From assembly GCF_010692325.1 (NCBI RefSeq), contig NZ_JAAHHW010000056.1:1-41294 (forward strand): DNA of 41,294 bases, in the 5' to 3' direction. Both the position numbers and the translations under genes were made by a program. The DNA is from Moorena sp. SIO3I8. Its GTDB lineage: Bacteria; Cyanobacteriota; Cyanobacteriia; Cyanobacteriales; Coleofasciculaceae. Every line of letters begins with the position of its first letter. Position 1 is the first letter of the stretch. Shown here one piece after another: positions 4,287-39,322 of this stretch. A model generated the notes under the pieces. It had not been told where the DNA came from and ran no database searches. It worked only from the letters and a program-made list of their open reading frames with translations.

Positions 4287-4401
4287 TATAGCGGTTTTTA
4301 ATTAGGTTAGGTACAAATTTTTGGTTTTTAGGGAACAGGGAGCAGGGAACAGATAAGAGGGAAAAAATCCTATGTACCTCATTAAACTAAAAACTGCTAT
4401 A
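4287..4401. mobile_element. TATAGCG/GAGGTAC miniature element, copy A
   Basis: The left end TATAGCGGTTTTTAATT with AGGTACA, and the right end read in reverse, TATAGCAGTTTTTAGTTT with GAGGTACA, form imperfect inverted repeats of about 29 bp. The core holds three GGGAACA/GGGAGCA heptamers (4328-4350). It lies between the Roco gene and the next gene, and its right end overlaps the last codons of that gene. Confidence 0.6.
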
Positions 4402-4623
4402 CTTATCAAGTTTAGACTTAACCTTAGACCAAACCGTAGAGTCAATCTCATCAGCTAATTCAGCCGCTACCTCTTCTGTGAGTTGACTGCGCTGGCTGAT
4501 TGACTTGAGTTCAAGATAGTTGAGGAGTTGGGTCAGTTGCTGATAATCAATTGCTGTCTTATCAATCTTGATGATGATCGTTTGGTCATCAACACTAAGA
4601 TTGTAATAAGGATTGTTAGACAT
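4387..4623 (-). CDS. small conserved-looking protein, antitoxin-like in size
   Basis: A 78-residue acidic, soluble protein without signal peptide or membrane segment. It starts with a short beta-rich stretch (DDQTIIIKIDK) followed by predicted helices (YQQLTQLLNYLELKSI; LTEEVAAELADEID; VWSKVKSKLDKY). This architecture is seen in small cyanobacterial antitoxin-like proteins, but no toxin gene adjoins it, so that role is only a guess. The final residues YSSF and the stop codon are encoded inside the right end of miniature element copy A, so the natural C-terminus may have been altered by insertion. It begins about 50 bp from element copy B on its upstream side. Confidence 0.6.
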   Translation of the reverse strand: MSNNPYYNLSVDDQTIIIKIDKTAIDYQQLTQLLNYLELKSISQRSQLTEEVAAELADEIDSTVWSKVKSKLDKYSSF

Positions 4624-4671
4624 AATTTATAATTCAATACACTAGTATTGTAAGATATTATATATGCTATA

Positions 4672-4833
4672 TATAGCGGTTTTTGCCCTAATGAGGTACA
4701 CAGTTTTTTTCCCTGTTCCCTCTTACCCTCCTGGGAGGGGTTAGGGTTGGGTTACTCTTCCCTGTTCCCTGTTCCCTGTTCCCTGTTCCCTAAAACCAGA
4801 AATTCTGTACCTCATCAAATTGAAAACCGCTAT
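4672..4833. mobile_element. TATAGCG/GAGGTAC miniature element, copy B
   Basis: Left end TATAGCGGTTTTTGCCCTA with TGAGGTACA; right end in reverse ATAGCGGTTTTCAATTTGA with TGAGGTACA. The core is TTCCCTG heptamers (about 4708-4790) around a C/G-rich piece. It ends eight bases beyond the urtE stop codon, so it may serve as the operon's 3' hairpin. Confidence 0.65.
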
Positions 4834-4841
4834 GTAACGAT

Positions 4842-5543
4842 TCAAACCGCTAAAAATTGCTGAATCACATCCTGACTCAGTTCACTAGTCGCGCCAGATG
4901 CCACAATTCCACCCTTCTGCATAGCATAGTAGCGGTCAGCTTGTCGGACAAAATGTAGATGCTGCTCCACCAAGAGCACAGAAATCCCAGTAGTTTCAAT
5001 AATCCGGCGCACAGCCGCTTCAATTTCCAAAATAATCGACGGTTGAATCCCTTCGGTAGGTTCGTCTAACACTAATAACTGAGGACGTCCCATTAATGCC
5101 CGTGCGATCGCTAATTGTTGCTGTTGTCCACCACTCAAGTCACCACCCATCCGGGACAACATTGATTTTAAGACTGGAAACAGCTCAAAGATATTGTCTA
5201 GGATGTCGTCTTCAGTCTTTCTACCCCCTCGACGTGCTTCTAAACCCAGCAACAAATTCTCTTTCACCGTTACCCGAGGGATAATCTCCCTCCCCTGGGG
5301 CACATAGCCAATCCCTAATCTGGCTCGTTTATCGGTAGATAGTTTAGTCAGGGGTTGACCAGCAAAGGTAATCGTGCCAGTGCGGGGTTTCAGTAATCCC
5401 ATAATCGTTTTGAGAAGAGTAGTTTTGCCCACACCATTCCGTCCAATCAGGCAAACCATTTGTCCTGCTGGTACATTCAAATCTACATTTCTGAGAATGT
5501 GGCTTTCACCGTAGTAGACATTTAAATTGGAAATTTGCAGCAT
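4842..5543 (-). CDS. urtE: urea ABC transporter ATP-binding protein UrtE
   Basis: A 233-residue ATPase of the branched-chain amino acid/urea (HAAT) ABC importer class. Walker A GRNGVGKTT lies at residues 34-42, the signature LSGGQQQQ in mid-protein, and Walker B LLVLDEPTEGIQ after it. The length is usual for UrtE/LivF proteins. It is the last gene of the leftward urtA-B-C-D-E set and would energise urea uptake at the inner face of the plasma membrane together with UrtD. A 420-bp repeat-filled gap separates it from urtD. No clear ribosome site is seen before the ATG. UrtE rather than LivF is chosen from the cluster and from cyanobacterial context. Confidence 0.92.
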   Translation of the reverse strand: MLQISNLNVYYGESHILRNVDLNVPAGQMVCLIGRNGVGKTTLLKTIMGLLKPRTGTITFAGQPLTKLSTDKRARLGIGYVPQGREIIPRVTVKENLLLGLEARRGGRKTEDDILDNIFELFPVLKSMLSRMGGDLSGGQQQQLAIARALMGRPQLLVLDEPTEGIQPSIILEIEAAVRRIIETTGISVLLVEQHLHFVRQADRYYAMQKGGIVASGATSELSQDVIQQFLAV

Positions 5544-5549
5544 AAGAGT

Positions 5550-5757
5550 TTTTTAGAAGTTAGAAGTTAGAATTTAGAATTGGGAATCGGGAATCGGGAA
5601 TCGGGAAGTTAGAAGTTAGAAGTTAGAAGTTAGAAGTTAGAATCGGGAATTTAGAATTTAGAATTTAGAATTTAGAATCGGGAATCGGGAATCGGGAATC
5701 GGGAATTGGGAATTGGGAATCGGGAATCGGGAATTGGGAATTGGGAATCGGGAATCG
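5550..5757. repeat. heptamer minisatellite (TTAGAAG / GGGAATC)
   Basis: Runs of TTAGAAG, TTTAGAA and GGGAATC/GGGAATT heptamers in alternating blocks between urtD and urtE. No inverted-repeat ends are seen immediately around it. The block structure suggests slippage or unequal exchange. Confidence 0.8.
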
Positions 5758-5820
5758 CAAAAATCCCTATATAGTGGATTAACTATTGCTAGCATGCCTA
5801 TTGCCTATTGCCTTAAATGC

Positions 5821-5949
5821 TATAGCGTTTCTAGGACTCATGAGGTATACAGGATTGTTTCACTCTTGCCTAATCCCTGCTCCCTGCTCCCTGCTCCCTG
5901 CTCCCTAAAACCTAGATATTTGTACCTCACAAGTCGTAAAATTGCTATA
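5821..5949. mobile_element. TATAGCG/GAGGTAC miniature element, copy C
   Basis: Left end TATAGCGTTTCTAGGACTCA then TGAGGTATAC; right end in reverse TATAGCAATTTTACGACT then TGAGGTAC. The core carries CTCCCTG heptamers (about 5878-5906). It lies just past the urtD stop codon. Confidence 0.65.
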
Positions 5950-5963
5950 TAGCACTTTACCCT

Positions 5964-7100
5964 TTACCCTTCTCCTACTTCTGCTTCCAAGGTTTTTACC
6001 ACTTCTGCTGGCAGATCCAACAGCTTCACTAAGTTTTGGTAAGCCGCTGCTTCAGCATCATTAATTTTTGGTTCGGTAGGTGTACGGGAACTTGATTTAA
6101 TCACTTCATAAGCCAGCTTTACGATTAGTTTTCGTTCTTCAATACTTTCTATTTCACTAGTCAACTCTTCGATAGGAACATTAAGTGCTAAATAATTCTG
6201 TAATTCTTGTTGTAATTGTTGCTGTTGTTCTGCATCTGTAGCAAACACTTGGCTAAAGCGAGATATGATCACATCAACTTCTTCTCGTGCCAGATTACCA
6301 TCAGACCAAGCCATAGCAGACACAATCCGTAGCATTTTCATTTGCTCTGCTGTAATCGATGGCTTTTGTCCTAAATACACTTCAATCACCCTGGGGTCAT
6401 TTTGGACTTGATCCATTGTGCCTTCACACAACACTGAACCCTGATGTAACACGGTTACTTGACGAGCAATCTGGCGCACGAATTCCATATCGTGTTCAAT
6501 CACAATAATGGAATGACTCTTGGCTAGAGCTAACAGCAAATCTCCTACATTTTCTGTCTCTTCATCGGTTAAACCAGCCACCGGTTCATCTACTAGTAAT
6601 AAATCCGGAGCCTGAGCCACTAACATCCCAATTTCTAACCGCTGTTTTTCCCCATGGGAGAGTAACTCGGCCAGTAAATTCGCTTTTTCCACTAACCCAA
6701 TGGTTTGCAGCAAACCCGCTACTGTCCGTTTTTCCCCCGGTAATGTACGTCCAAACAGGGTGGAAAAGACATTTTTATCACGATTGCAGGCTAAATCTAA
6801 GTTTTCCCGAACCGTTAGATTTAGGTAAACTCGTGGTGTCTGAAATTTTCGACCGATCCCGAAGCGAGAGATTTGGTGTTCCGATAAGCCTCGCAAATCC
6901 CTTCCTTTAAACAACACCCGTCCCTCCGTGGGCTGTACTTTCCCAGTCACTACATCCAGAAACGTAGTTTTCCCAGCACCATTAGGACCAATCATCACTC
7001 GCAATTCCCCAGTATCCATACTAAAGTTAAACTGGTTAATTGCTTTAAAGCCGTCAAAACTTACAGTTAAGTTATCAATTTCAAGAATTTTTGAGTTCAT
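5964..7100 (-). CDS. urtD: urea ABC transporter ATP-binding protein UrtD with C-terminal TerB-like extension
   Basis: A 378-residue protein. Residues 1-250 form a LivG/UrtD-type ABC ATPase: Walker A GPNGAGKTT near residue 38, a variant signature LSHGEKQR, and Walker B LLLVDEPVAGLTDEE. Residues from about 255 to the end are an additional all-helical domain with MAWSDGNLAREEVD and PKINDAEAAAYQNLVKLLDL. This resembles TerB/DUF533-type metal-binding helical domains with an acidic DG..E pattern. Ordinary UrtD proteins stop near 250 residues, so this is a fusion. It works with UrtE on the UrtB/UrtC permease pair. The ATG at 7100 follows a heptamer minisatellite within a few bases, leaving little room for a normal leader. 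Confidence 0.9.
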   Translation of the reverse strand: MNSKILEIDNLTVSFDGFKAINQFNFSMDTGELRVMIGPNGAGKTTFLDVVTGKVQPTEGRVLFKGRDLRGLSEHQISRFGIGRKFQTPRVYLNLTVRENLDLACNRDKNVFSTLFGRTLPGEKRTVAGLLQTIGLVEKANLLAELLSHGEKQRLEIGMLVAQAPDLLLVDEPVAGLTDEETENVGDLLLALAKSHSIIVIEHDMEFVRQIARQVTVLHQGSVLCEGTMDQVQNDPRVIEVYLGQKPSITAEQMKMLRIVSAMAWSDGNLAREEVDVIISRFSQVFATDAEQQQQLQQELQNYLALNVPIEELTSEIESIEERKLIVKLAYEVIKSSSRTPTEPKINDAEAAAYQNLVKLLDLPAEVVKTLEAEVGEG

Positions 7101-7108
7101 TGTTTTTA

Positions 7109-7204
7109 GGGAATAGGGAGTAGGGAGTAGGGAATCGGGAATCGGGAATCGGGAATCGGGAATCGGGAGTAGGGAATCGGGAGTAGGGAATCGGGAATCG
7201 GGAA
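7109..7204. repeat. GGGAATC/GGGAGTA heptamer minisatellite
   Basis: About thirteen heptamers, mixing GGGAGTA and GGGAATC, directly upstream of the urtD start codon within the operon. Copy number is likely to vary and could influence expression of downstream urtD/urtE. Confidence 0.85.
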
Positions 7205-7308
7205 AAAATTATGTGTAAATCATTGTCTTGATGCAGTCGCGAATGGGGTAAATAACTAATGAATAATAACTAAGCTGTTGTGCATTTAAATGGGATATTG
7301 TTCAGTTA

Positions 7309-7417
7309 TATAGCGTTTCTAGGATTTATGAGGTATGCTTCTCAACCTCAAAGTCCCCCTTGATAAGGGGGATTTAGGGGGATCCCTTTGTACCTCATGG
7401 CATAGAGAATTGCTATA
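7309..7417. mobile_element. TATAGCG/GAGGTAC miniature element, copy D, with G-rich palindrome core
   Basis: Left end TATAGCGTTTCTAGGATT then TGAGGTATGC; right end in reverse TATAGCAATTCTCTATGCCA then TGAGGTAC. In place of heptamers, the core (7350-7394) is a CCCCCTTGATAAGGGGG palindrome followed by TTAGGGGGATC, like the interior of the element at 4-135. The ends can therefore carry different cargo. Confidence 0.6.
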
Positions 7418-7431
7418 AAACAAACCCTATC

Positions 7432-7488
7432 CCCCGACTCCCGACTCCCGACTCCCGACTCCCGACTCCCGACTCCCGACTCCCGATA
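7432..7488. repeat. CCCGACT heptamer minisatellite
   Basis: Eight CCCGACT units just past the urtC stop codon, between urtC and urtD. The opposite-strand unit AGTCGGG is the same as the array after pixL at 37617-37683. Confidence 0.85.
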
Positions 7489-7516
7489 ATGAAGAGCGCT
7501 GTAAATCAAGACCAGT

Positions 7517-8683
7517 TTAACGACCAATCTCTTCTTTTTCCCGTTGGACTACTGGATCTTTTTCTAGGCTGGGATAAGTTGTTATCACTGGTTTTTCGGT
7601 ACCAAAAAGCGATCGCATTTGTTCAATTCCCTCGTCTCGCAACCAGCCGACAATACCATTAGGCAGTACTGTCACTACAATTAGGAACAGCGCGCCCTGG
7701 AAAAATAGCCAAACTTCAGGAAATTGCTCACTCAACAAGGTTTGAGCTAGTCTGACTAATAAAGTACCCAGAATTGCTCCCACTAGAGTTGCTCGTCCTC
7801 CCACAGCCACCCAAATCACCATCTCAATGGAAAACGCTACTTCCATATAGCTGGGGGTAACAATCCCTGATTGTACGGTATAAAGCGCCCCAGCCACTCC
7901 AGCGATTCCCCCAGAAACCGCAAATACCAGGACTTTGAATCCGGTAGGATCGTAGCCAGAGAAACGCACCCGATTCTCATCATCCCGTATGGCAATTAAC
8001 AACCGACCAAAACGTCCACTGGTTAACCAACGGCACAATAAGTAGATCAGAACCACACACAGGATACTAATTTCGTAGAAAGCTAACTGAGCTTGTTTAG
8101 AACTTACTAACATTCCAAACAGGGTTTCTGTATCAGTTTTCAACCCATTAGTACCATTAATTAGCTTTTGCTGCCCATTGAAAAAATTGAATAAAACCAG
8201 CAGTGCGGCTTGGGTCAAAATCGAGAAATAAACCCCTTTAATCCGGTTACGAAATACCAGATAACCCAGCAATCCTGCCACGATACTGGGAATTAAAACA
8301 ATAGCAATTAGGGTGAAAGGAAACGAATAAAATGGCTGCCAGAAGAATGGGAGTTCTTTCACTCCATAGAGGGTGAAGAATTCCGGTATTTCTCCTTCTG
8401 GTAATTGCAGTTTGAGGTGCATAGCAAAAGCATAGCCCCCCAACGCAAAAAATATACCATGTCCTAGACTCAGCAGTCCGGTATACCCCCAAATCAGGTC
8501 AATCCCAATCGCGACAATAGATAATGACAAAAAACGCCCCAACAGCTTGAGGCGAAAATCCGGCAAAATTGCTGGCATTAATAACGCGAAAACTAGAGCA
8601 ATTGCTACGATTGCTACTATTTCTATGATTAACTTTCGTCGCCGCTGCTTTTTAATGGCTTGTGTTCTAGATACATACGTCAT
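7517..8683 (-). CDS. urtC: urea ABC transporter permease UrtC
   Basis: A 388-residue polytopic membrane protein of the LivM/UrtC permease class. An N-terminal basic stretch (KKQRRRK) precedes the first membrane segment (LIIEIVAIVAIALVFALLM). The conserved permease motif GLLSLGHGIFFALGGYA follows, and later SGGIAGVAGALYTVQSG and VAVGGRATLVGAILGTLLV. About ten hydrophobic segments are apparent. It pairs with UrtB to form the urea channel of the importer. The cytoplasmic tail is long and charged. It is third in the operon; miniature element copy E lies between it and urtB. Confidence 0.92.
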   Translation of the reverse strand: MTYVSRTQAIKKQRRRKLIIEIVAIVAIALVFALLMPAILPDFRLKLLGRFLSLSIVAIGIDLIWGYTGLLSLGHGIFFALGGYAFAMHLKLQLPEGEIPEFFTLYGVKELPFFWQPFYSFPFTLIAIVLIPSIVAGLLGYLVFRNRIKGVYFSILTQAALLVLFNFFNGQQKLINGTNGLKTDTETLFGMLVSSKQAQLAFYEISILCVVLIYLLCRWLTSGRFGRLLIAIRDDENRVRFSGYDPTGFKVLVFAVSGGIAGVAGALYTVQSGIVTPSYMEVAFSIEMVIWVAVGGRATLVGAILGTLLVRLAQTLLSEQFPEVWLFFQGALFLIVVTVLPNGIVGWLRDEGIEQMRSLFGTEKPVITTYPSLEKDPVVQREKEEIGR

Positions 8684-8702
8684 AATTTATGAAAATAGCA
8701 AC

Positions 8703-8855
8703 TATAGCAGTTCTCAATTTAGTGAGGTACTTTAGCAAAGGGAGTAGGGAGTAGGGAGTAGGGAGTAGGGAGTAGGGAGTAGGGAGTAGGGAGTAGGGAG
8801 TAGGGAATCGGGGCAATACAATTGACTGTACCTCATAAGTACGATAAACGCTATA
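8703..8855. mobile_element. TATAGCG/GAGGTAC miniature element, copy E
   Basis: Left end TATAGCAGTTCTCAATTTAG then TGAGGTAC; right end in reverse TATAGCGTTTATCGTACTTA then TGAGGTAC. The core is about ten GGGAGTA heptamers (8739-8810). The right end contains the TAG that stops urtB. Confidence 0.7.
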
Positions 8856-10020
8856 ATTCTGCCGTGCGTCCTTTTTGTGGGAATATTCCTGAAGGTCTCA
8901 CTTGTAAAAAGGTAATAATTAAAGCGAAAACCATAACTTTTGCCATACTGGTGGTCGCAAAGAAGGTAAAGAAGTCCGTTACCGGTTTCAGGAACTCTAC
9001 TGGCATCAACATAAAGGCTATGCTTCCCGAACCAATCAGATAGGTAAGTGTACCAATTGCGAGGGCGGCTATTATGCTTCCGAATAAGTTTCCGACACCG
9101 CCAACTACTACCACCATAAAGGTATCGACGATATAATTTTGACCAGTATTGGGACCAACAGAACCTAGTAATGTAATCGCACAACCTGCTACACCAGCTA
9201 AACCAGAACCTAGGGCAAATGTTAACGCATCTACCGTTTCTGTAGGGATACCTAAGCAAGCACTCATACTGCGATTTTGGGTAACAGCTCGAATCCTTAA
9301 TCCCCAACTGGAGCGATTTAAGAACCAGTAGGTTCCCAATAGACAAATAATCGTCAAAATAATGATAAAGATCCGGGCATAGGGCAATTGGAAGTTACCA
9401 ATGGGAAATCCCCCTTGAAGCCATGCTGGTGGAGTCACGTCTACATTTCTGGCACTAAACCAAGGTCGAGTAATTGCCCGTTGACCCGTTTGTCCTAACA
9501 ACACCCCAGTTACGATGGCAATTCCTAGAGATAAGAATACCATCAAAGCGATCGCCCAATTGCGAATTCTCTGCCAATCTAAACGACGGCTTAGAACCCA
9601 CCTTGACCCAAAAAACAGCAGGCAAAATACCCCAATCCCAATCACCAATACCCAATTTACACTGCGGACAAACTGCCGCAATATCAAACTTACCCCCCAA
9701 GTAGCGAGAAGGGTTTCCAACGGTCGCCCATATAGATAACGAATCACCCCCCTCTCTAATACCAGTCCTACCAACGCTGCCACCAGAAAAGCTATGGGCA
9801 GGGCAAAAAATATATAGACATTAAACAACGAATCGCCCAAAAAGGCTTTAAAGGTATTTTGGACAACATAAGTTGTATAAGCGCCCAACATCATTAACTC
9901 GCCGTGAGCAAGATTAATCACGCCCATCAGTCCAAAGACAACCGCTAGTCCTAGGGCAGCAATCAGTAGCACTGAGCCAATACTAATCCCGTTAAAAATT
10001 CCTTCTAAAAGTGGCAGCAC
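8851..10020 (-). CDS. urtB: urea ABC transporter permease UrtB
   Basis: A 389-residue polytopic permease of the LivH/UrtB class. The N-terminus has IGSVLLIAALGLAVVFGLMG followed by the conserved VINLAHGELMMLGAYTTY. Later motifs are LRIRAVTQNRSMSACLGI, the EAA-like cytoplasmic loop, and VVGGVGNLFGSIIAALAIG. It forms the membrane channel with UrtC. The start is a GTG at 10020; no better in-frame ATG is seen. The stop codon TAG at 8851-8853 falls inside the terminal repeat of miniature element copy E, so the last residues (TAEL) lie directly at the element border. Confidence 0.92.
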   Translation of the reverse strand: MLPLLEGIFNGISIGSVLLIAALGLAVVFGLMGVINLAHGELMMLGAYTTYVVQNTFKAFLGDSLFNVYIFFALPIAFLVAALVGLVLERGVIRYLYGRPLETLLATWGVSLILRQFVRSVNWVLVIGIGVFCLLFFGSRWVLSRRLDWQRIRNWAIALMVFLSLGIAIVTGVLLGQTGQRAITRPWFSARNVDVTPPAWLQGGFPIGNFQLPYARIFIIILTIICLLGTYWFLNRSSWGLRIRAVTQNRSMSACLGIPTETVDALTFALGSGLAGVAGCAITLLGSVGPNTGQNYIVDTFMVVVVGGVGNLFGSIIAALAIGTLTYLIGSGSIAFMLMPVEFLKPVTDFFTFFATTSMAKVMVFALIITFLQVRPSGIFPQKGRTAEL

Positions 10021-20447: not shown

Positions 20448-20522
20448 GGTGTCTGACGGGACTTGAACCCGTTATGACTGGTTCCACAAACCAGCGCCGC
20501 GACCACTTTGGCTTCAGACACC
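20448..20522 (-). tRNA. tRNA-His (GUG anticodon)
   Basis: 75 nt. Acceptor GGTGTCTG/CAGACACC pairing; anticodon arm CTGGT-TTGTGGA-ACCAG gives GTG; the T arm has GTTCAAGTCCC. Regular class I structure with no encoded CCA. Confidence 0.95.
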
Positions 20523-20567
20523 ACGTTGTTTAAAACAATACAAATTCCTAATTATTTAGTCCTAATT

Positions 20568-20709
20568 ACAGCGTTTTTCATAATGATGAGGTATACAGGT
20601 TTTTTTCCCTGTTCCCTGTTCCCTGTTCCCTGTTCCCTGTTCCCTGCTCCCTGCTCCCTGCTCCCTTTTTCTATAAATCCTCTGTTCACAACTCAAATAA
20701 AAATGCTAT
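20568..20709. mobile_element. TATAGCG/GAGGTAC miniature element, copy F
   Basis: Left end ACAGCGTTTTTCATAATGA then TGAGGTATAC; right end in reverse ATAGCATTTTTATTTGAG. The core is TTCCCTG/CTCCCTG heptamers (20607-20665). The outermost bases differ a little from other copies (ACAGC). The right end overlaps the 3' end of the NADAR gene and supplies its stop codon. Confidence 0.6.
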
Positions 20710-22727: not shown

Positions 22728-22801
22728 TACCCCTGACTGGATTTGAACCAGCAACACCTAGGTTCTAAGCCTAGAGCCTCTGCCAATTGGGCTACAGGGG
22801 T
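22728..22801 (-). tRNA. tRNA-Leu (UAG) with short variable region
   Basis: Acceptor ACCCCTG/CAGGGGT, anticodon arm CTAGG-CTTAGAA-CCTAG giving TAG (codon CUA), T arm CTGGTTCAAATCCAG. At 74 nt it has a five-base variable loop, whereas leucine tRNAs normally carry a long variable arm. Identity from the anticodon only. Confidence 0.75.
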
Positions 22802-22805
22802 TTGG

Positions 22806-22884
22806 ATCCGAGGGGCAGAATTTGCGCTTATGACCAATTGACTGTTGGTCAACTGGACTAAACCAAACTGCGCCACATCTGGAT
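22806..22884 (-). pseudogene. decayed tRNA
   Basis: Remnant with D-arm-like GTGGCGCAGTTTGG and an anticodon-like hairpin CAGTTGA-CCAACAG-TCAATTG, but without U33 and without a pairing T arm. Acceptor pairing ATCC/GGAT is partial. It sits in register between two intact genes of the array. Confidence 0.45.
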
Positions 22885-22890
22885 AATTGG

Positions 22891-22966
22891 TACTCCCGAC
22901 AGGATTTGAACCTGTAAAAAAACTAGAATCTCGGTCTAGTGCGTCTACCAATTCCGCCACGGGAGC
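22891..22966 (-). tRNA. tRNA-Leu-like (GAG) with collapsed variable arm
   Basis: Acceptor GCTCCCG/CGGGAGT, discriminator A and encoded CCA (22888-22890). The D arm GTGGCGGAATTGGTAGACGC is typical of leucine tRNAs. Anticodon arm CTAGA-CCGAGAT-TCTAG gives GAG with C at position 33. The variable region is only a T run. T arm ACAGGTTCAAATCCTGT is intact. Confidence 0.65.
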
Positions 22967-22968
22967 GT

Positions 22969-23044
22969 ATACCCCTGGCAGGATTTGAACCTGCAAAACA
23001 CTCGTTCTGGGGGAGTGATGTCTACCAATTGCATCACAGGGGTA
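22969..23044 (-). tRNA. tRNA-Leu-like (CAG), divergent
   Basis: Acceptor TACCCCT/AGGGGTA pairs fully and the T arm GCAGGTTCAAATCCTGC is intact. The anticodon stem CACTC/GAGTG encloses nine bases (CCCCAGAAC), best read as CAG with poor position 33. The D arm GCAATTGGTAGACATC is leucine-like. Function doubtful. Confidence 0.5.
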
Positions 23045-23047
23045 AAG

Positions 23048-23121
23048 TCGGGGTGACAGGATTTGAACCTGCGACATCTTGCTCCCAAAGCAAGCGCGCT
23101 ACCAAACTGCGCTACACCCCG
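23048..23121 (-). tRNA. tRNA-Pro (UGG)
   Basis: Acceptor CGGGGTG/CACCCCG, anticodon arm CTTGC-TTTGGGA-GCAAG giving TGG, T arm GCAGGTTCAAATCCTGT. A regular, probably functional class I tRNA. Confidence 0.92.
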
Positions 23122-23125
23122 TTGG

Positions 23126-23199
23126 TACTCCTGGTGGGAGTCGAACCCACAACTGACCGTTTTTAAAACGGTCGCCTCTGCCAATTGGGCTACAGGAGC
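23126..23199 (-). tRNA. tRNA-Leu (UAA) with short variable region
   Basis: Acceptor GCTCCTG/CAGGAGT, discriminator A and encoded CCA (23123-23125). Anticodon arm ACCGT-TTTAAAA-ACGGT gives TAA (codon UUA). T arm GTGGGTTCGACTCCCAC. Like the UAG gene it has a class I body (TAGCCCAATTGGCAGAGGC) and lacks the long leucine variable arm. Confidence 0.75.
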
Positions 23200-23232
23200 A
23201 TATTTGATACCAAGTTGCTATCAAAATTGATT

Positions 23233-23307
23233 TGGGTTAAAGGTTAAAGGTTAAAGGTTGAAGGTTAACCTTCAACCAGTTAACCTTCAACCGGTTAACC
23301 TTCAACA
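23233..23307. repeat. GGTTAAA / GGTTGAAGGTTAACC repeat inside the tRNA array
   Basis: GGTTAAA heptamers followed by palindromic GGTTGAAGGTTAACCTTCAA units. It splits the array into two parts. Related GGTTGAAGGTT units appear in frame in pixL. Confidence 0.7.
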
Positions 23308-23312
23308 ATAGA

Positions 23313-23385
23313 ATGCCGGAGTTGGACTCGAACCAACTTCTCCGTGATTCAGAGTCACGGCGACTTGCCAATCGTCCATCCGGCA
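23313..23385 (-). tRNA. tRNA-Gln (CUG)
   Basis: Acceptor TGCCGGA/TCCGGCA, anticodon arm CGTGA-CTCTGAA-TCACG giving CTG, T arm GTTGGTTCGAGTCCAAC. Regular structure. Confidence 0.9.
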
Positions 23386-23412
23386 TTTAGCACTTGCAAT
23401 AGCAAGTGACAG

Positions 23413-23487
23413 TCCCCCAAGGTCGGCATCGAACCGACGACCTCTCGCTTTTCAGGCGAGCGCTCTACCCAACTGAGCTACCGGGGG
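23413..23487 (-). tRNA. tRNA-Phe (GAA)
   Basis: Acceptor CCCCCGG/TTGGGGG with two G-T pairs, D arm TAGCTCAGTTGGGTAGAGC, anticodon arm CTCGC-CTGAAAA-GCGAG giving GAA, T arm GTCGGTTCGATGCCGAC. Confidence 0.92.
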
Positions 23488-23518
23488 ATACAAAGGATAA
23501 AAATGAAACCCCTCCTGA

Positions 23519-23591
23519 CTGCCCTGGCAGGGATCGAACCCGCGACCATCGAGTTAACAGCTCGCTGCTCTTCCAACTGAGCTACAGGGCA
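23519..23591 (-). tRNA. tRNA-Asn (GUU)
   Basis: Acceptor TGCCCTG/CAGGGCA, D arm TAGCTCAGTTGGAAGAGC, anticodon loop CTGTTAA giving GTT (one weak stem pair), discriminator G, T arm GCGGGTTCGATCCCTGC. Confidence 0.9.
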
Positions 23592-23595
23592 TTCA

Positions 23596-23670
23596 TCGTG
23601 CCGACGGGGATCGAACCCGCAATCACCTGCTTGAAAGGCAGGTGGCTTAACCAAATTTGCCTACGGCACG
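23596..23670 (-). tRNA. tRNA-Glu (UUC)
   Basis: Acceptor CGTGCCG/CGGCACG, anticodon arm CCTGC-CTTTCAA-GCAGG giving TTC, T arm GCGGGTTCGATCCCCGT. The D arm (TAGGCAAATTTGGTTAAGCC) is unlike the usual bacterial glutamate tRNA, so charging identity rests on the anticodon. Confidence 0.82.
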
Positions 23671-23679
23671 GCAAATAGC

Positions 23680-23749
23680 GCGGAGACTGAGATTTGAACT
23701 CAGATCAACGGTTTTGGAGACCGTCATGTTGCCAGTTACACCATCTCCG
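23680..23749 (-). tRNA. tRNA-Trp (CCA)
   Basis: 70 nt. Acceptor CGGAGAT/GTCTCCG, anticodon arm ACGGT-CTCCAAA-ACCGT giving CCA, T arm CTGAGTTCAAATCTCAG. The D arm GGTGTAACTGGCAACAT is phage-tRNA-like. Somewhat short. Confidence 0.8.
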
Positions 23750-23753
23750 TAGG

Positions 23754-23825
23754 TCGCAGCGGCGGGACTCGAACCCGCACTCTCCTGGTTATGAGCCAGG
23801 TGCTCTACCTTTGAGCTACGCTGCT
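23754..23825 (-). tRNA. tRNA-Met (CAU)
   Basis: Acceptor GCAGCG/CGCTGC with an outer A-G mismatch, D arm TAGCTCAAAGGTAGAGC, anticodon arm CCTGG-CTCATAA-CCAGG giving CAT, T arm GCGGGTTCGAGTCCCGC. Second CAT gene of the array. Confidence 0.88.
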
Positions 23826-23837
23826 AGGTCACTAATT

Positions 23838-23895
23838 GGAGTCACTGATTGGAGCAGGATTTGCACCTGCAACCGATAAAAGCGACTGCAAAGAG
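23838..23895 (-). pseudogene. 3' half of a decayed tRNA, possibly Cys-type
   Basis: An intact T arm (GCAGGTGCAAATCCTGC) follows a TTTGCAG stretch that could be a GCA anticodon loop, but no D arm or acceptor 5' strand exists before the next tRNA gene begins. A TTGGAGTCACTGA direct repeat lies at its 3' side. Confidence 0.4.
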
Positions 23896-23969
23896 CGAGG
23901 CTGACGGGAATCGAACCCGCGACTTCCTGTTCGACAGACAGGCGCTCTGACCATCTGAGCTACAGCCCC
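23896..23969 (-). tRNA. tRNA-Asp (GUC)
   Basis: Acceptor GGGGCTG/CAGCCTC, D arm TAGCTCAGATGGTCAGAGC, anticodon arm CCTGT-CTGTCGA-ACAGG giving GTC, discriminator G as expected for Asp, T arm GCGGGTTCGATTCCCGT. Confidence 0.93.
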
Positions 23970-27172: not shown

Positions 27173-27411
27173 CTACTTACTTTAATACTTTAGTAAAGGG
27201 AACAGGGAGTAGGGAGTAGGTAACTTTCTATAAAAACTTATCACAATTAATTTACTATACCTACTATACCTATTCAATTAATTGAATTATTGTTATTTTA
27301 TTTTTAAGCTTATAAATTCAAAGTTATGGTAATTAGTTTAAACTAAAAAAAATGATTAACACTAAAAAACAAAAGAATTGTAATTAACATCATCAATAAG
27401 CAAAAAAAAAT

Positions 27412-33714: not shown

Positions 33715-33748
33715 TCATTTGCCTTGCTAAAATCCATTTTAAATGCGT

Positions 33749-33766: not shown

Positions 33767-33827
33767 GGGGACTGGGATATATCTTTTTTATTTGATTTCA
33801 GGCTATAGACATTTTCAATGCACAAAA

Positions 33828-33885
33828 TTTTTATTAAAACTAGGAAAATTTTATTGAATAAAAATTTTCCTAGTTTTAATAAAAA
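33828..33885. terminator. perfect 25-bp stem hairpin between pixJ and pixL
   Basis: Stem 33828-33852 and 33861-33885 are perfect reverse complements (TTTTTATTAAAACTAGG then AAAATTTT), with an 8-base loop ATTGAATA. AT-rich, reading the same on both strands. It could end or attenuate the pixGHIJ transcript before pixL, or be a miniature element. Confidence 0.5.
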
Positions 33886-33946
33886 ATCACTAATAATACG
33901 AGCATTTTTTCGTATAATCAGTTAGAGATAATTTTTTTTATTTTAT

Positions 33947-34055
33947 CCCGATTCCCGATTCCCGATTCCCGATTCCCGATTCCCGATTCCCTACTCCCTA
34001 CTCCCTACTCCCTACTCCCTAAGAATAAAATACCTCACCCAATTGACAACTGCTC
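33947..34055. mobile_element. half copy of the TATAGCG/GAGGTAC element with CCCGATT/CCCTACT heptamers
   Basis: About ten CCCGATT and CCCTACT heptamers (33947-34020) are followed by a right end which in reverse reads TAGAGCAGTTGTCAATTGGG then TGAGGTAT. The left end is not recognisable. The element ends two bases before the pixL start codon. Confidence 0.5.
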
Positions 34056-34057
34056 TA

Positions 34058-37000
34058 ATGACTAATGACCCGAAAATTCGTGAGCAAAGCTATCGCTACT
34101 TTCTCCAGGAAGCACCGGAACTGCTGCAAGTCTTGGAAGAGGATTTGCTGAGTTTGTCAGAAAACTATAGCATCAATAAAGTCAACAACTTGATGCGGAC
34201 TACCCATACCCTCAAAGGCGCAGCAGCTAGCATTGGGTTGGAAACAATCGCCACTGTAGCTCACTCCTTGGAGGATGTTTTTAAAGCTCTGTTTAACCCC
34301 GACTTGTCCATTGATCCAGAAATTGAAGCCTTACTGTTTCAAGCTTATGAGTGTCTGCGCCTACCTCTGACCGCTGAACTCACAGGGGGGCAAATCGATG
34401 ACACCGAAATCAAAAATCGAACTGCTGCTGTTGTTGCCCAACTCCAAGAGAAGCTGGGGGACTGTTTTGGTCACGAATCCCATCTGCCCACCTCACTAGA
34501 ATTGGGCTTCGACGTCACCCAGTCCATTTTTGAAGTGGGGGTTAGCCAAGGCTTAGACGTAATCCAAGCTGCCCTAAATAATGACAATCCCAGTGAAATC
34601 AGCATCACAGTTCGCCACCAAGCAGACATTTTCTTGGGGTTAGGGGAATCCCTTAATTTACCAGGGTTTGCCGCTATTGCCAAAAATGCGATCGCAGCCC
34701 TAGACAACCATCCCGATCAGGTGGTCACCATTGCCAAGACCGCTTTGTGTGATTTCGTTGCAGCACAAGCAGCGGTGCTAGAAGGGGATAGGACTCAAGG
34801 TGGTCAACCTTCTATAGCTCTGCAACAACTAGCTGACCTTAGGTCTTCAAGTCAAAATTCACAATTCACAATTCAAAATCAATCTTCTGTCTTCGGCAAC
34901 GGAAAAGAACAAGACCTTAATCGAGTTGAGCTGGGACTAAAAGAAGGAGAAGGTGTTGTTAATAATTCTTCCGTTACTGATCCAGAATCTAAAACAAGGA
35001 AACGGTCCCAGCTTGTGGAAATGATCTGGGGAGGATCAACTACACTAGATCAGCAAACCTTTGATCAAAGTAGAAAGTTGCAGAGGTCGGAGCAAACAGA
35101 GATAGATGTCTTGCATGGAGAGATAGCCTCACCTGATCAAGAAATCGCCACAGAAAAAAATTTTGTTTTGCACAACATGGGGATGATTGATGCAGATAAT
35201 CAAAAAAAAGAACAACGACAAGATCCCGAAATTATCACAGACGAGATCATCCCGCCCATAGGCAATGCTAGAAATGCCCCTCTAAACTCTTCCCATCTCG
35301 CCATAACTCCCTCCAACCAACATCCCAGCACGCCATCATCTAGGGATCTATCTGGTACTGTGCGGATAAATATTGAGCATCTAGAATACCTGAATTACAC
35401 AATTGGGGAATTACTAACCAACCAAAACCGCCAGTTGCTCGAAAATGAACAACTGCTGGCTGCAGTGCGAGTACTCCTTGATCGTATCGACCAACATCAG
35501 CAAGTTCTAGAGCAACTCCAAGATTGGTACGACCGCCTGTTTATTTTGACCCAACAAAAGCAGATTAGGCAAAGGTTGCAAGTTAGCAAGTTGAATGTTG
35601 AAGGTTTAAACAAAAACAAAGCTACCGACCCAAATCTTAGTTTTTATTCCTACCCTTGGGCAGAAAAAACGTTGCAGCTTAGCAAGTTGAAGGTTGAAGG
35701 TTTAAAGGAACACTTTGCTACCAACCCCAATCCTACGGCCAACCTTGGCCAAAAGGCCACGCTACGCTCTCAACCTGCCAACTTTCAACATAGCAACTTT
35801 CAACATAGCAACTTTCAACATAGCAACTTTCAACCAACTAACCTTGGCCAAAAGGCCACGCTACGCGAACAACATACCGACTATTTCGATGACCTGGAAC
35901 TAAAACGTTATAGCGCACCCGAGCTTCTGATCCAGTCAGTTCTAGAAGATGCTATTCAATTAACAGAAGCTGCCCATGACATTGAGCTGTTCAGCACCCA
36001 ATCCAGTAAAACTCTCGAACAACAACGTCGGTTGTTAACCAACCATCGTGATGTCTTGATGGACGCCCGGATGTTGCCTTTAGGGGAAATATTTAGTCGT
36101 TTCCCCCCTGTCCTCAAGCAGTTGTCAGCTTCCCACCATAAGCTGGTAGAGCTAAAAATCTCTGGTAATGATGTTTTAGTGGATAAAGTTGTTGCCCAGA
36201 AGTTGTACGACCCCCTGCTGCATCTTGTGCGTAATGCTTTTGACCACGGCATTGAGACTCCTGCTGTACGGCAACAACAGGGCAAACCAGAAAAGGGATT
36301 AATTGAAATCAGTGCTTGCCATCGGGGCAGATATTTGGTGATTGAAGTTTTTGATGACGGGCCAGGGTTGAATTTTGAACGGATTCGCCAACTAGCAGTA
36401 GAACGTGAACTGATAGACTTTGAACAGAGTAATAATCTCAGTGAGGCTCAGCTGAGGAATTTGTTGTTTGAACCAGGCTTTTCCACTGTCTCTGGGGTGA
36501 ATAACCTCTCTGGACGTGGTGTTGGTCTTGATGTTGTCCTAAACCAGGTCAAAGCTCTGAGGGGTTCCGTCCAGGTTGATTCTTCTCCGGACCAAGGCAG
36601 CAGATTTAGACTACAAATTCCCTTGAGTTTAACCATAGATAAATTACTTCTGTGCCAGGCTGGGAAGCAAGTTTATGGTTTGATTACTGATCAAGTCGAG
36701 CAAATTATTATTCCTGAGGAACACCAGCTCCGAAGTTGGGAAGATGGCAAAGTTCTCCACTTGGGTACCGGGACTGATCAGCAACTGGTTAAAGTCTACC
36801 AACTTGGGCAAGTCCTAGATTATTCCTCTGTGGCAAATCCATTCTCAGTAACCCATCCCCATCAACCTGTTGTTCCTCTTCAGACGATTAGACCAATCAT
36901 TCTGATCCATTACCAGGATCAGCTTGTCGGTCTGGAAGTAGACCAACTGTTGGGAGACCAGGAGTTGGTGATTCGTCCTTTGGGGACAATGATTGTGCCA

Positions 37001-37606
37001 CCCCCCTATGTCAATGGGGGCAGTATTCTGGCCGATGGTCGGTTGACATTGGTGCTGGATGGGACTGAATTGATCCAGTACCTGTCTGAGCAACAGACCG
37101 ATGGCAGTCAAAGGTTACAGGTTAGCACATTGAAAGTTGAAAGCAAAAGCTATGACCAAGCCACCCAACCGATGGAAACCCTTTCGCGAAAGCAGCTTCC
37201 ACCTTCAACGGTTGAACCGTTCTGGGTCAGACGTAAGCCAAAGGTACTCCTGGTAGATGACTCGATCACCCTGCGCCAAACTCTAGCCATGACCTTACAG
37301 AAAAATGGCTATCAAGTGTTTCAAGCCCAGGATGGTTATGAAGGGATTGAGCAACTACAGCATCAGACAGACATACAGTTAGTGATCTGTGATATTGAGA
37401 TGCCTCGCATGAATGGGTTTGAGTTTCTCAAACACTGTCAGCAAGACCCAGCTTTGGTAGATATTCCTGTAGTCATCCTCACATCCCGCAGTAACGATAA
37501 ACACCGCTTGATTGCTGCACAGTTGGGGGCAAAGGCTTATATCACTAAGCCCTATTTGGAACACAAATTGTTGACAACAGTAACCGATGTTGTTGAGCCC
37601 ATTTAA
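34058..37606 (+). CDS. pixL: PixL: CheA-type hybrid histidine kinase with receiver
   Basis: 1182 residues from the ATG at 34058 (the frame opens with TTG at 34043; no strong ribosome site is seen for either). An N-terminal HPt domain has the phospho-acceptor His50 in HTLKGAAASIG. A long variable linker is followed by a dimerisation region and the CheA ATPase with LHLVRNAFDHGIETP (Asn726), DDGPGLNF and GRGVGLDVV. A CheW-like regulatory domain and a C-terminal receiver (VLLVDDSITLRQ, Asp1112 in CDIEMPRMNGFE) complete it. It should receive light signals from PixJ through PixI and phosphorylate PixH/PixG. The linker (about residues 505-610) is built partly from repeat DNA read in frame: NFQHS three times and NLGQKATLR twice. 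Confidence 0.9.
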   Translation: MTNDPKIREQSYRYFLQEAPELLQVLEEDLLSLSENYSINKVNNLMRTTHTLKGAAASIGLETIATVAHSLEDVFKALFNPDLSIDPEIEALLFQAYECLRLPLTAELTGGQIDDTEIKNRTAAVVAQLQEKLGDCFGHESHLPTSLELGFDVTQSIFEVGVSQGLDVIQAALNNDNPSEISITVRHQADIFLGLGESLNLPGFAAIAKNAIAALDNHPDQVVTIAKTALCDFVAAQAAVLEGDRTQGGQPSIALQQLADLRSSSQNSQFTIQNQSSVFGNGKEQDLNRVELGLKEGEGVVNNSSVTDPESKTRKRSQLVEMIWGGSTTLDQQTFDQSRKLQRSEQTEIDVLHGEIASPDQEIATEKNFVLHNMGMIDADNQKKEQRQDPEIITDEIIPPIGNARNAPLNSSHLAITPSNQHPSTPSSRDLSGTVRINIEHLEYLNYTIGELLTNQNRQLLENEQLLAAVRVLLDRIDQHQQVLEQLQDWYDRLFILTQQKQIRQRLQVSKLNVEGLNKNKATDPNLSFYSYPWAEKTLQLSKLKVEGLKEHFATNPNPTANLGQKATLRSQPANFQHSNFQHSNFQHSNFQPTNLGQKATLREQHTDYFDDLELKRYSAPELLIQSVLEDAIQLTEAAHDIELFSTQSSKTLEQQRRLLTNHRDVLMDARMLPLGEIFSRFPPVLKQLSASHHKLVELKISGNDVLVDKVVAQKLYDPLLHLVRNAFDHGIETPAVRQQQGKPEKGLIEISACHRGRYLVIEVFDDGPGLNFERIRQLAVERELIDFEQSNNLSEAQLRNLLFEPGFSTVSGVNNLSGRGVGLDVVLNQVKALRGSVQVDSSPDQGSRFRLQIPLSLTIDKLLLCQAGKQVYGLITDQVEQIIIPEEHQLRSWEDGKVLHLGTGTDQQLVKVYQLGQVLDYSSVANPFSVTHPHQPVVPLQTIRPIILIHYQDQLVGLEVDQLLGDQELVIRPLGTMIVPPPYVNGGSILADGRLTLVLDGTELIQYLSEQQTDGSQRLQVSTLKVESKSYDQATQPMETLSRKQLPPSTVEPFWVRRKPKVLLVDDSITLRQTLAMTLQKNGYQVFQAQDGYEGIEQLQHQTDIQLVICDIEMPRMNGFEFLKHCQQDPALVDIPVVILTSRSNDKHRLIAAQLGAKAYITKPYLEHKLLTTVTDVVEPI
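35572..35866 (+). repeat. mobile short repeats translated in frame inside pixL
   Basis: GTTGCAAGTTAGCAAGTTGA and GTTGCAGCTTAGCAAGTTGA units (35576 and 35672), three exact 15-bp AACTTTCAACATAGC units (35780-35824), and two identical 27-bp copies with CCTTGGCCAAAAGGCCACGC (35741-35767, 35840-35866). All lengths preserve the frame. A similar AGGTTACAGGTTAGCACATT unit is at about 37114. Confidence 0.75.
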
Positions 37607-37616
37607 CCGTTAATAA

Positions 37617-37725
37617 GGGAGTCGGGAGTCGGGAGTCGGGAGTCGGGAGTCGGGAGTCGGGAGTCGGGAGTCGGGAGTCGGGGGAATAAAATTGGCTGTA
37701 GCTCATAAGTATGATCAACGCTATA
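37617..37725. mobile_element. half copy of the TATAGCG/GAGGTAC element with GGGAGTC heptamers
   Basis: Nine GGGAGTC heptamers (37617-37683) followed by a right end which in reverse reads TATAGCGTTGATCATACTTA then TGAGCTAC. A left end is not recognisable. It begins ten bases past the pixL stop codon. Confidence 0.55.
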
Positions 37726-37862
37726 TCCTGCAATTCTTTGGTAATTAGTAATTGATCATTGCTCCTGGTGAATTGGTAGTTTAAAAAATCCTAAAAATAT
37801 CCCTATAACTACTCAGCACTAAACAATAATCACTAAACAATAATCACTATAAAATAAAGGCG

Positions 37863-38315
37863 ATGGACGATTCAAAACTAGAAAAATTAATGGTTTTTAA
37901 AATTGCTGATTATTCCCTATGTCTCCCGATTATGGATGTTATTAAAGTGGTTAATTATACCACGGAAATCAGCCGGGATATGAAAACCATGGGATTAGTT
38001 CAGCTAGGCAAGCATACCATTAAAGTTTGGGATTTACATCAGCAGTTGGGGGATGGTAGTTTACCTCACCGAAGCCCTAACCAAAGGTTCTTAGTGATTA
38101 TTCGTCCTAGGGACTCCGAACTTTGGGGAATTTTTGTCGATGATCTGCCTAATTTGGTGGAGTTACCCCAAGACATGATGCGACCTATCCCGAAGTCTTA
38201 CCGTCAGGCCAGTGTTCTGGAGATGATATCTCATGCAGCTGTTATATCAAACGAAGCATCTACTCAGAAAATTTTTCTTTTGGATTTACAGCAAGTCGGT
38301 GCCTTGACTCCTTAA
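37863..38315 (+). CDS. second CheW-like adaptor
   Basis: 150 residues with CheW features: MVFKIADYSLCLPIMDVIKV at the start, MGLVQLGKHTIKVWDLHQQL, and VIIRPRDSELWGIFVDDLPN. It may link PixJ or other receptors to PixL, or substitute for PixI. It follows pixL after a 256-bp repeat-containing gap and precedes ureG. Assignment to the pix pathway is from position only. Confidence 0.8.
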   Translation: MDDSKLEKLMVFKIADYSLCLPIMDVIKVVNYTTEISRDMKTMGLVQLGKHTIKVWDLHQQLGDGSLPHRSPNQRFLVIIRPRDSELWGIFVDDLPNLVELPQDMMRPIPKSYRQASVLEMISHAAVISNEASTQKIFLLDLQQVGALTP

Positions 38316-38369
38316 TCGTCACTAGAAAAGGCTATAATAAAAATCTAAACTTACCAATTACCATTTGTT

Positions 38370-38402
38370 AATTGTTAACTTGTAGCAATTAACAATTTTT
38401 TT
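38370..38402 (+). terminator. possible terminator between cheW and ureG
   Basis: AATTGTTAA, a ten-base loop, TTAACAATT, then a T run (38398-38402). The stem is AT-rich and weak, but its position suits separation of the pix transcript from ureG. Confidence 0.4.
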
Positions 38403-38458
38403 ATGGCTAATGATCATAAATCAACTACACTATTAAAATTAACTCTAAGTTAGTTAAC

Positions 38459-39061
38459 ATGAGTACTTTTCGTGTTGGTATTGCTGGTCCAGTTGGTTCA
38501 GGGAAAACTGCTCTATTAGATGCATTGTGTAAAGCCCTGCGAGACTCTTATCAAATCGCTGTGGTCACCAATGATATATATACTCAGGAAGATGCCCAGT
38601 TTTTAGTTAGGAGTCAGGCCCTAGAAAGCGATCGCATTCTGGGTGTGGAAACGGGGGGTTGTCCCCATACTGCCATTCGGGAAGATGCCTCCATGAACTT
38701 GGCAGCCATTGAACAGTTGGAAAATCGGTTTACTGATTTAGACTTGGTGTTCCTAGAAAGTGGAGGGGATAACCTAGCAGCAACCTTCAGTCCAGAACTA
38801 GTAGATTTCACGATCTACGTTATTGATGTGGCTGCTGGGGATAAGATTCCTCGTAAAGGAGGACCAGGAATCACCAAGTCTGACTTGCTGGTGATTAACA
38901 AAATTGACCTGGCACCTCAGGTGGGAGCAGATTTAGGGGTGATGGAACGGGATGCTAAAAAGATGCGAGGAGATAAACCCTTTGTGTTTACGAATTTGAA
39001 AACTAAAGAGGGAATCTCTACGGTGATTGACTTGATAAAACTTGACATGGGCGCTTATTAA
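38459..39061 (+). CDS. ureG: urease accessory GTPase UreG
   Basis: 200 residues, full UreG length. P-loop [18 protein letters not shown] near the N-terminus, the metal-binding CPH motif in [15 protein letters not shown], the conserved [17 protein letters not shown], and NKID near residue 143. UreG is a SIMIBI-class GTPase that, with UreF and UreD, delivers nickel to urease. It stands apart from ureF, about 13 kb away beyond the pix genes, and has its own 143-bp upstream gap. Confidence 0.96.
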
Positions 39062-39142
39062 TTCCCTTGAGAAGGGAGTAATAAAAGTGTTGGAATCAAA
39101 CCTAATCTGATCATATGATCATGGGTGGTGATGATACTGTTT

Positions 39143-39322
39143 TATAGCGTTTATCACAGTTATGAGGTACAGTCTTCTTTGACGTTGATTCCCTGTCTTG
39201 ATGCAACCCATCCCTATTCCCTATTCCCTATTCCCTCTTCTCTCTTCTCTGTTCCCTGTTCCCTGTTCCCTGTTCCCTAAAATCCATAAATTGTTTACCT
39301 CATAGCTATGAGAATTGCTATA
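39143..39322. mobile_element. TATAGCG/GAGGTAC miniature element, copy G
   Basis: Left end TATAGCGTTTATCACAGTTA then TGAGGTAC; right end in reverse TATAGCAATTCTCATAGCTA then TGAGGTAA. The core is TTCCCTA and TTCCCTG heptamers (about 39208-39279). The ends agree closely with copies D and E. Confidence 0.7.

What the first reader, a model, noticed from the sequence alone, without database searches (positions are those of the whole stretch)
4287..39322. Miniature element family with conserved inverted ends and an exchangeable minisatellite cargo
Copies at 4287-4401, 4672-4833, 5821-5949, 7309-7417, 8703-8855, 20568-20709 and 39143-39322, and half copies at 33947-34055 and 37617-37725, share ends reading TATAGCG(T/G)TT...TGAGGTAC in inverted orientation. 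Flanking TA suggests Tc1/IS630-type target choice. Between the ends lies a different heptamer array each time (GGGAACA, TTCCCTG, CTCCCTG, GGGAGTA, CCCGATT, GGGAGTC), or in copy D a G-rich palindrome. Some arrays are purine-rich on the plus strand and others pyrimidine-rich. The ends are conserved while the cargo is fluid, which is unusual for a MITE.
Basis: partly seen in the sequence, partly recalled or inferred. Interest (0 to 1): 0.8.

Follow-up and report, generated by a model that had tools for sequence, protein, structure and literature searches.

The report
Transposon-derived mini-elements carrying heptamer minisatellites
Small non-coding mobile elements, with the ends of an IS630-type transposon of cyanobacteria, mostly carry in their middle a seven-base tandem repeat that changes its sequence and length in place, and they account for part of the G-rich repeats scattered through these genomes.

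Summary
The window lies in a Moorena-type cyanobacterium whose genome has 258 exact hits of the end TATAGCNNTTN{8,20}TGAGGTA (reversed control 0). The outer boundary is sharp; 49 of 56 paired elements in 1.27 Mb of Moorena DNA have TA at both outer ends. Three sites have alleles without the element and with a single TA. Apparently intact ~1.03-kb IS630-family copies with the same ends occur in Moorena and other cyanobacteria. The elements are IS630-derived MITEs.

"Exchangeable cargo" needs correcting. Most array-bearing copies share asymmetric inner arms, with the array in one orientation to them; the G-rich and C-rich versions are insertion orientations. At orthologous insertions the array changes in place: at three of six sites length differs, mainly by multiples of 7, and the unit can change (GGGAGTA/GGGAGTC). 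Core replacement also exists (palindrome cores, a chimera, other genera).

New: arrays are concentrated in the elements (37/56; random intergenic placement mean 6.4, maximum 16). 52 of 158 free G-rich arrays carry element arms. Other cyanobacterial families show the design with other heptamers (GGCAAAA in Microcystis, GGGCATA elsewhere): period 7 is kept, the unit is not. Why the core is a heptamer array is inferred, not shown.

The parts
4287..4401 (+). Copy A: MITE, 115 bp, G-rich heptamer core (array about 4330-4363)
   Evidence: profile pair, scores 26.6 and 36.4; same insertion in three congeners with a changed array
4672..4833 (-). Copy B: MITE with TTCCCTG array (4758-4791) and a nested GC palindrome
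   Evidence: profile pair, scores 33.4 and 36.0
5821..5949 (-). Copy C: MITE with TCCCTGC array (5874-5906); ends nearly those of the IS in L130
   Evidence: profile pair; site without the element in G002, CA instead of TA
7309..7417 (.). Copy D: 109-bp subfamily with a G/C-rich palindrome core and no heptamer array
   Evidence: profile pair; same core in G001; in G003 a further insert is nested in it
8703..8855 (+). Copy E: MITE with GGGAGTA array (8739-8806)
   Evidence: profile pair; orthologous alleles of 160 bp (GGGAGTC) and 139 bp, and a 354-bp chimera in G001
20567..20709 (-). Copy F: left end and TTCCCTG/CTCCCTG array (20605-20666), decayed right end
   Evidence: single end, score 28.9; right-arm score 38.4 at the array
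39143..39322 (-). Copy G: MITE with TCCCTAT/TCCCTGT core (39211-39279)
   Evidence: profile pair; 180 bp in three genomes
33946..34057 (-). Half copy: heptamer array joined to one end only
   Evidence: single end, score 25.6; identical region in G002, other array lengths in G001 and G003
37617..37725 (+). Half copy of the copy-E type: GGGAGTC array (37617-37682) plus one end
   Evidence: single end, score 25.0; array changed in G002 and G003
7107..7230 (+).
   Evidence: arm scores 10.4 and 28.3; G001 and G003 alleles keep more of the left end
39464..39465 (.). Empty target TA: G001 has a 143-bp heptamer-bearing element here

Best explanation
These are IS630-derived MITEs. A group of about 1.03-kb IS630-family insertion sequences, spread through cyanobacteria, has ends made of an outer TATAGC block and an inner TGAGGTAC block with 10 variable bases in the middle part. 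Miniature derivatives keep the ends and are, by inference, cut and pasted in trans into TA by that transposase. Most have two short asymmetric arms and between them a tandem array of period 7, G-rich on one strand. After insertion the array gains and loses whole units and its unit drifts, most likely by slippage and unequal exchange. Exchange between arrays of different copies makes chimeras, half copies and shuffled ends, and decayed copies leave free-standing arrays. Shown: ends, TA target, empty alleles, ends shared with the IS, fixed architecture, array change in place, enrichment, remnants. Inferred: trans-mobilisation, slippage as cause, exchange as the source of half copies, and that the array is a passenger.
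For: 258 ends in G000, reversed control 0. 56 pairs in 1.27 Mb, 49 with TA at both outer ends. Empty alleles with a single TA at three sites: G002:2782589, G001:676276, G001:690265. IS copies with the same ends: L130 with two open overlapping frames, L078 and L140 broken; DDE_3 131 bits and IS630 NF033545 120.6 bits over their cut-offs for the second frame; 33 of 80 named loci with a 0.9-1.2 kb inward pair of ends. Conserved arms and orientation. 37 of 56 elements hold an array against mean 6.4, maximum 16 in 1000 random intergenic placements. 52 of 158 free G-rich arrays carry an arm, 0 and 0 with arms the wrong way. In-place change at copies A and E and at G002:2526469. Element lengths in two Microcystis-group genomes: 31 of 38 in one class modulo 7.
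Against: No movement was observed. Copy C's empty allele in G002 has CA, not TA; the G003 allele without copy G has one leftover base; the window allele of the G001:690265 site lacks the element but is not a clean TA; G001:120193 against G002 is ambiguous. Three of six orthologous array sites show no length change, and copy A also shows 1-bp differences. 106 of 158 free G-rich arrays have no detectable arm. In the window's own genome the IS copies that I read are broken. Elements without arrays are common, so the array is not needed for spread.
Confidence: 0.85

Rival explanations
1. Exchangeable cargo: the ends are stable and whole arrays are swapped in from a genome-wide pool of heptamer arrays by recombination or gene conversion.
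For: Chimeric allele of copy E in G001; mosaics of end types and cores, for example G001:120193 with copy-C ends and a copy-G core; palindrome cores; arrays abutting the ends without arms in genus g10; unit change at copy E.
Against: 35 of 39 in-element G-rich arrays keep at least one arm and arms are never found the wrong way round at 158 free arrays; length changes at intact orthologous copies are mainly multiples of 7.
Confidence: 0.2
2. The array has a selected role in the element, for example a G-quadruplex or a flexible spacer that helps transposition or gene regulation.
For: Arrays at 37 of 56 Moorena elements, period 7 in other families, and a second element family with the same habit.
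Against: Microcystis-group units have only GG, so the GGG quadruplex is not conserved; 19 of 56 Moorena elements have no array by this test; period 7 also dominates outside the elements (28 of 35 arrays in non-Moorena flanks).
Confidence: 0.15
3. Chance similarity among intergenic repeats.
For: Heptamer arrays are very common in these genomes: 390 lag-7 arrays in 1.27 Mb.
Against: Reversed-pattern controls 0 in Moorena, reversed profile 0 at the threshold used, empty alleles and IS copies with the same ends.
Confidence: 0.01

Closest known systems
IS630/Tc1/mariner insertion sequences of cyanobacteria such as ISY100 (PMC2170065, passages seen)
   Same: DDE transposase of the IS630 family, imperfect terminal inverted repeats, insertion at TA with TA duplication.
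   Different: ISY100 is 947 bp with 24-bp repeats and a single 282-aa frame; here the IS is about 1.03 kb, the end is about 28 bp, and in most copies the transposase lies in two overlapping frames. The miniature elements have no gene.
BrickBuilt, a minisatellite-bearing MITE of Porphyromonas gingivalis (PMC4596501, abstract and part of one section)
   Same: A non-coding element with leader and tail segments and a tandem repeat in the middle.
   Different: 23-nt unit, IS5-type ends, 19 copies in one strain and no uniform target duplication; here 7-nt units, IS630-type ends, TA target, and spread across cyanobacterial families with different units.
G-rich heptamer repeats of Nostoc and Xanthomonas (PMC4692102, abstract, two sections and passages)
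   Same: Period 7, G-rich, dispersed, mostly intergenic, variable in length and sequence at one locus between relatives.
   Different: That paper reports that the repeats were generally not associated with insertion sequences or transposable elements. In Moorena 52 of 158 free G-rich arrays carry MITE arms and 37 of 56 MITEs hold an array.

Membership tests
MITE | Short, without a transposase gene, many copies, terminal inverted repeats | tested here: met
   56 pairs of 95-323 bp
MITE | Target duplication and empty sites | tested here: met
   Single TA in the empty allele at three sites, TA at both outer ends in 49 of 56 pairs; copy C, copy G and the window allele of G001:690265 are imperfect
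MITE | Ends shared with an autonomous element | tested here: met
   L130 and 33 of 80 named loci
MITE | Movement in trans by that transposase | not testable with these tools
   needs a transposition assay
IS630 family (the partner) | IS630-type DDE transposase with N-terminal HTH | tested here: met
   Second frame of L130: DDE_3 and NF033545 over their cut-offs; first frame: HTH_Tnp_IS630 26.5 over 21.3, but NF033545 only 56.2 under its cut-off of 100
BrickBuilt | IS5-type ends GAGACC... and a 23-nt unit | tested here: not met
   Ends TATAGC...TGAGGTAC, unit 7 nt
G-rich heptamer repeats (Rehm et al. 2015) | Period 7, G-rich unit, dispersed in the genome | tested here: met
   390 lag-7 arrays against 25 at lag 8 and 14 at lag 9 in 1.27 Mb; 193 with a dominant unit starting GGG
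G-rich heptamer repeats (Rehm et al. 2015) | Quadruplex formation in vitro | not tested

The most novel reading that the evidence does not exclude
IS630-type MITEs are a main vehicle that seeds and spreads the dispersed heptamer minisatellites of cyanobacteria. The core keeps period 7 across families while its unit is rewritten lineage by lineage, so the elements are moving test sites for a host process that expands seven-base units whatever their sequence.
Probability: 0.38. Interest if true: 0.7.

Novelty: new variant of a known kind. Interest (0 to 1): 0.52.

Why it matters
The origin and role of the abundant heptamer repeats of cyanobacteria are open, and the main paper that I found on them reports no general link with mobile elements (PMC4692102, passage). 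Here a third of the free G-rich arrays in a Moorena sample is tied to a mobile element, and one and the same insertion can be compared across genomes with fixed flanks and a changing array. That makes the step size and unit drift of a bacterial minisatellite measurable, and it separates period 7 from GGG quadruplexes as the conserved feature.

Tried and rejected
Rejected: chance similarity (controls). Rejected as the main process: exchangeable cargo (arms and orientation). Rejected as the conserved property of the core: GGG quadruplexes (Microcystis-group units have only GG). Rejected as the partner: IS copies with TATAGCGGTTTGC...TTAGTTAC ends (L076, L077), related but with another inner block. 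Rfam at gathering thresholds found only 12 tRNAs in the window. Literature searches (listings seen) returned no paper that I recognised as describing this combination; the Microcystis NIES-843 genome paper, cited for MITEs, is not held, and ISfinder and supplementary tables could not be read, so single copies or the IS may be annotated elsewhere.

Limits and rows dropped: 35 rows carry the label EMPTY; several are repeated alignments of one site or slips in heptamer flanks (all rows for 7309), and I used only the sites named here. The outputs were cut, so not every other row was read. In one search I left one 1,038-bp IS pair out of the length test; copies there are not independent, so its binomial value is only a guide. 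The arm profiles were trained on 10 left and 22 right arms of elements, so the in-element figures are partly circular; the free-array counts and the wrong-way control are not. The 59 elements come from loci fetched by the ends pattern, a few per genome, not a random sample. Some loci may overlap. One search used a wrong pattern and gave one hit; it was redone.
Full report
What was checked. The window is contig C463 of G000 (8.0 Mb), in one genus with G001, G002 and G003. G002 has a contig of the length of Moorena bouillonii PNG (NZ_MKZS01000001.1, 8,262,658 bp), and two contigs of G003 have the lengths of contigs of the MAG Moorena sp. SS36440bin_2. So the window is from Moorena or a near relative (inference).

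Ends. The exact pattern TATAGCNNTTN{8,20}TGAGGTA occurs 258 times in G000 (122 forward, 136 reverse) and 454, 294 and 224 times in G001, G002 and G003; the reversed pattern 0 times in each. Nearly all listed hits are 27 bases long, so the variable middle is of nearly fixed length. With the outer block left free, TATAGC is 87-95% conserved per position and the bases outside are near random (n=91). A profile run on 1,266,082 bp of Moorena DNA (window, 722 kb of G002, 470 kb of G001, 33 kb of G003) gives 174 ends at threshold 12, reversed profile 0. They form 56 inward pairs of 95-323 bp and 62 single ends. 49 of 56 pairs have TA at both outer ends.

Mobility. Flanks of the paired elements were aligned to the other fetched stretches. 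Three sites have an allele without the element and with one TA where the filled allele has TA on both sides: G002:2782589 (empty in G001), G001:676276 (empty in the window at 39464) and G001:690265 (empty in G002, in G003 and in a second copy of the region in G001). Window copy C is absent in G002 with CA in place of TA. Against or unclear: copy G is absent in G003 with one leftover base; the window allele of the G001:690265 site lacks the element without a clean TA; G001:120193 against G002 is ambiguous.

Partner. A search for DDE_3 (PF13358) in G000 gave 24 places. One, L078, lies between ends of this type in a 1,030-bp element with broken frames. Its C-terminal piece, searched in eight genomes (matches in 7 of 8), led to L130 in G003: 1,033 bp, two overlapping open frames, ends TATAGCGTTTCTAGGACTCATGAGGTAC and TATAGCAATTCTACGACTTGTGAGGTTC, nearly those of window copy C, middle part included. 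Its second frame is DDE_3 (131 bits, cut-off 28.6) and IS630 transposase NF033545 (120.6, cut-off 100); the first frame matches HTH_Tnp_IS630 (26.5, cut-off 21.3) and is below the NF033545 cut-off (56.2). Another subfamily's ends flank broken IS copies in L140 and L086. In the named collection 33 of 80 loci have a 0.9-1.2 kb inward pair of these ends; eight are near-identical copies in one Leptolyngbya genome, and many of the others are cut by contig ends or only partial matches. The ends pattern with final C occurs in 87 of 386 cyanobacterial genomes, 49 of 142 genera; the reversed pattern in one genome.

Architecture. With the G-rich strand on top, most elements read: end, about ACAAATTTCTGGGTTTTA, array, about GGGAAAAAATCCTGT, end. 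Subfamilies differ: the copy-G type has another right arm, the copy-E type has other short arms, the copy-D type has a palindrome and no array. 37 of 56 elements hold a lag-7 array; arrays with a GGG unit make up 19.9% of element DNA against 2.4% of other intergenic DNA. Random intergenic placement of the 56 lengths gives a mean of 6.4 with an array, maximum 16 in 1000. Of 158 free arrays with at least three GGG, 52 carry one or both arms in the right place and orientation, at a control rate of 0.5% per side; arms the wrong way round occur at 0 and 0. Of 193 other heptamer arrays 5 have an arm. So about a third of the free G-rich arrays look like remnants or halves of the elements; the other 106 are not explained by this family, though some belong to a second one.

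Turnover in place. Copy E is the same insertion in four genomes: 153 bp with GGGAGTA in the window, 160 bp with mostly GGGAGTC in G002, 139 bp in G003, and a 354-bp chimera in G001. Copy A has lengths 115, 116, 158 and 157: two classes 42 bp apart, plus 1-bp differences. G002:2526469 (178 bp) and G001:14402 (157 bp) differ by 21 bp. Unchanged in length: copy G (180 bp in three genomes), G002:2526976 (147 in two), G001:265975 (166 in two). A free array changes likewise: the one at 7433 is CCCGACT in the window and CTGTTCC in G001.

Other genera. In 59 distinct elements from other loci (two of them Moorena), 18 have a lag-7 run and at most one has a run at any other lag from 4 to 12. Units differ: GGCAAAA/GGCAAGA with arms like those of Moorena in genus g33, GGGCATA/GGGCATC abutting the ends in genus g10, GGGGAGT in G007, GGGAATT in G005, TAGGGGC in G143. 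There 31 of 38 element lengths listed for G111 and G324 fall in one class modulo 7 (from the listing). Outside Moorena, lag-7 arrays number 16 in 7,208 bp of elements and 28 in 190,298 bp of flanks; other lags total 1 and 7. Period 7 is thus a habit of these genomes as a whole, and the elements are rich in it.

Mechanism. Shown: shared ends, TA target, empty alleles, ends shared with an IS630-type IS, fixed architecture, change in place mainly by whole units, remnants. Inferred: that the IS moves the elements in trans by cut and paste as ISY100 does (PMC2170065, passages), and that slippage and unequal exchange change the array. A GGG quadruplex as the reason for the core is weakened, because GGCAAAA arrays keep the period without GGG. 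The core may be a passenger; members without an array are common.

Known and new. MITEs, IS630 ends and G-rich heptamers are each known; a minisatellite in a MITE is known in Porphyromonas (PMC4596501, abstract and part of one section). The paper on heptamers of Nostoc and Xanthomonas (PMC4692102, abstract, two sections and passages) reports no general link with mobile elements. MITEs of Anabaena sp. 90 and of Microcystis PCC 7806 are described in other papers (PMC3542288, PMC11448079, passages); the passages seen name no such element, the Microcystis one being ISL3-related. Searches listed no description of this combination. I rate it a new variant of a known kind.

Noticed in passing
Moorena stretches, e.g. 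G002:2114470 and G002:2188150; the array at window 27204-27220 has a similar flank: A second miniature element family, end TATAGCAATCCGTGTAGGAATTGTGA: 19 loose hits in 1.27 Mb (reversed control 0; a few hits look spurious), 12 of 19 with a heptamer array just inside the end and 2 of 19 outside.
   Followed up: partly
L231-L304, IS630-type IS copies: The transposase lies in two overlapping frames in 20 of 26 distinct copies (7 with a -1 and 13 with a +1 layout), with a run of A7-A9 in the overlap in 16 of 26; 3 of 26 have a single frame. This suggests expression by slippage or frameshift, which is reported for the IS630 family (PMC5009743, passages).
   Followed up: partly
window 7309-7417 and its G003 allele (G003:C108:13142-13452): In G003 a further element with CAGGGCTGT-type ends is nested in the palindrome of copy D; the same insert sits in the G003 allele of copy B.
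   Followed up: no
window 4672-4833; several elements in G001 and G002: A GC palindrome (CCCCTCCTGGGAGGGGTTAGGGGTGGGTT and variants) is nested inside the heptamer arrays of several elements.
   Followed up: no
G001:120193-120358 and others: End types and cores are shuffled among elements, for example copy-C ends round a copy-G core.
   Followed up: no
window 2024-4103: A 69-bp repeat of about 30 copies inside the large open frame 141-4271; the aligned stretches of G001, G002 and G003 seem to hold fewer copies.
   Followed up: no
window 22728-23969: A cluster of 11 tRNA genes on the minus strand; one more lies at 20448-20521.
   Followed up: no
window 39640-39698 and 40995-41219: Octamer and nonamer arrays (ATCTCCCC, TGGGGAGA, GTGTGGGAG), unlike the heptamers elsewhere.
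   Followed up: no
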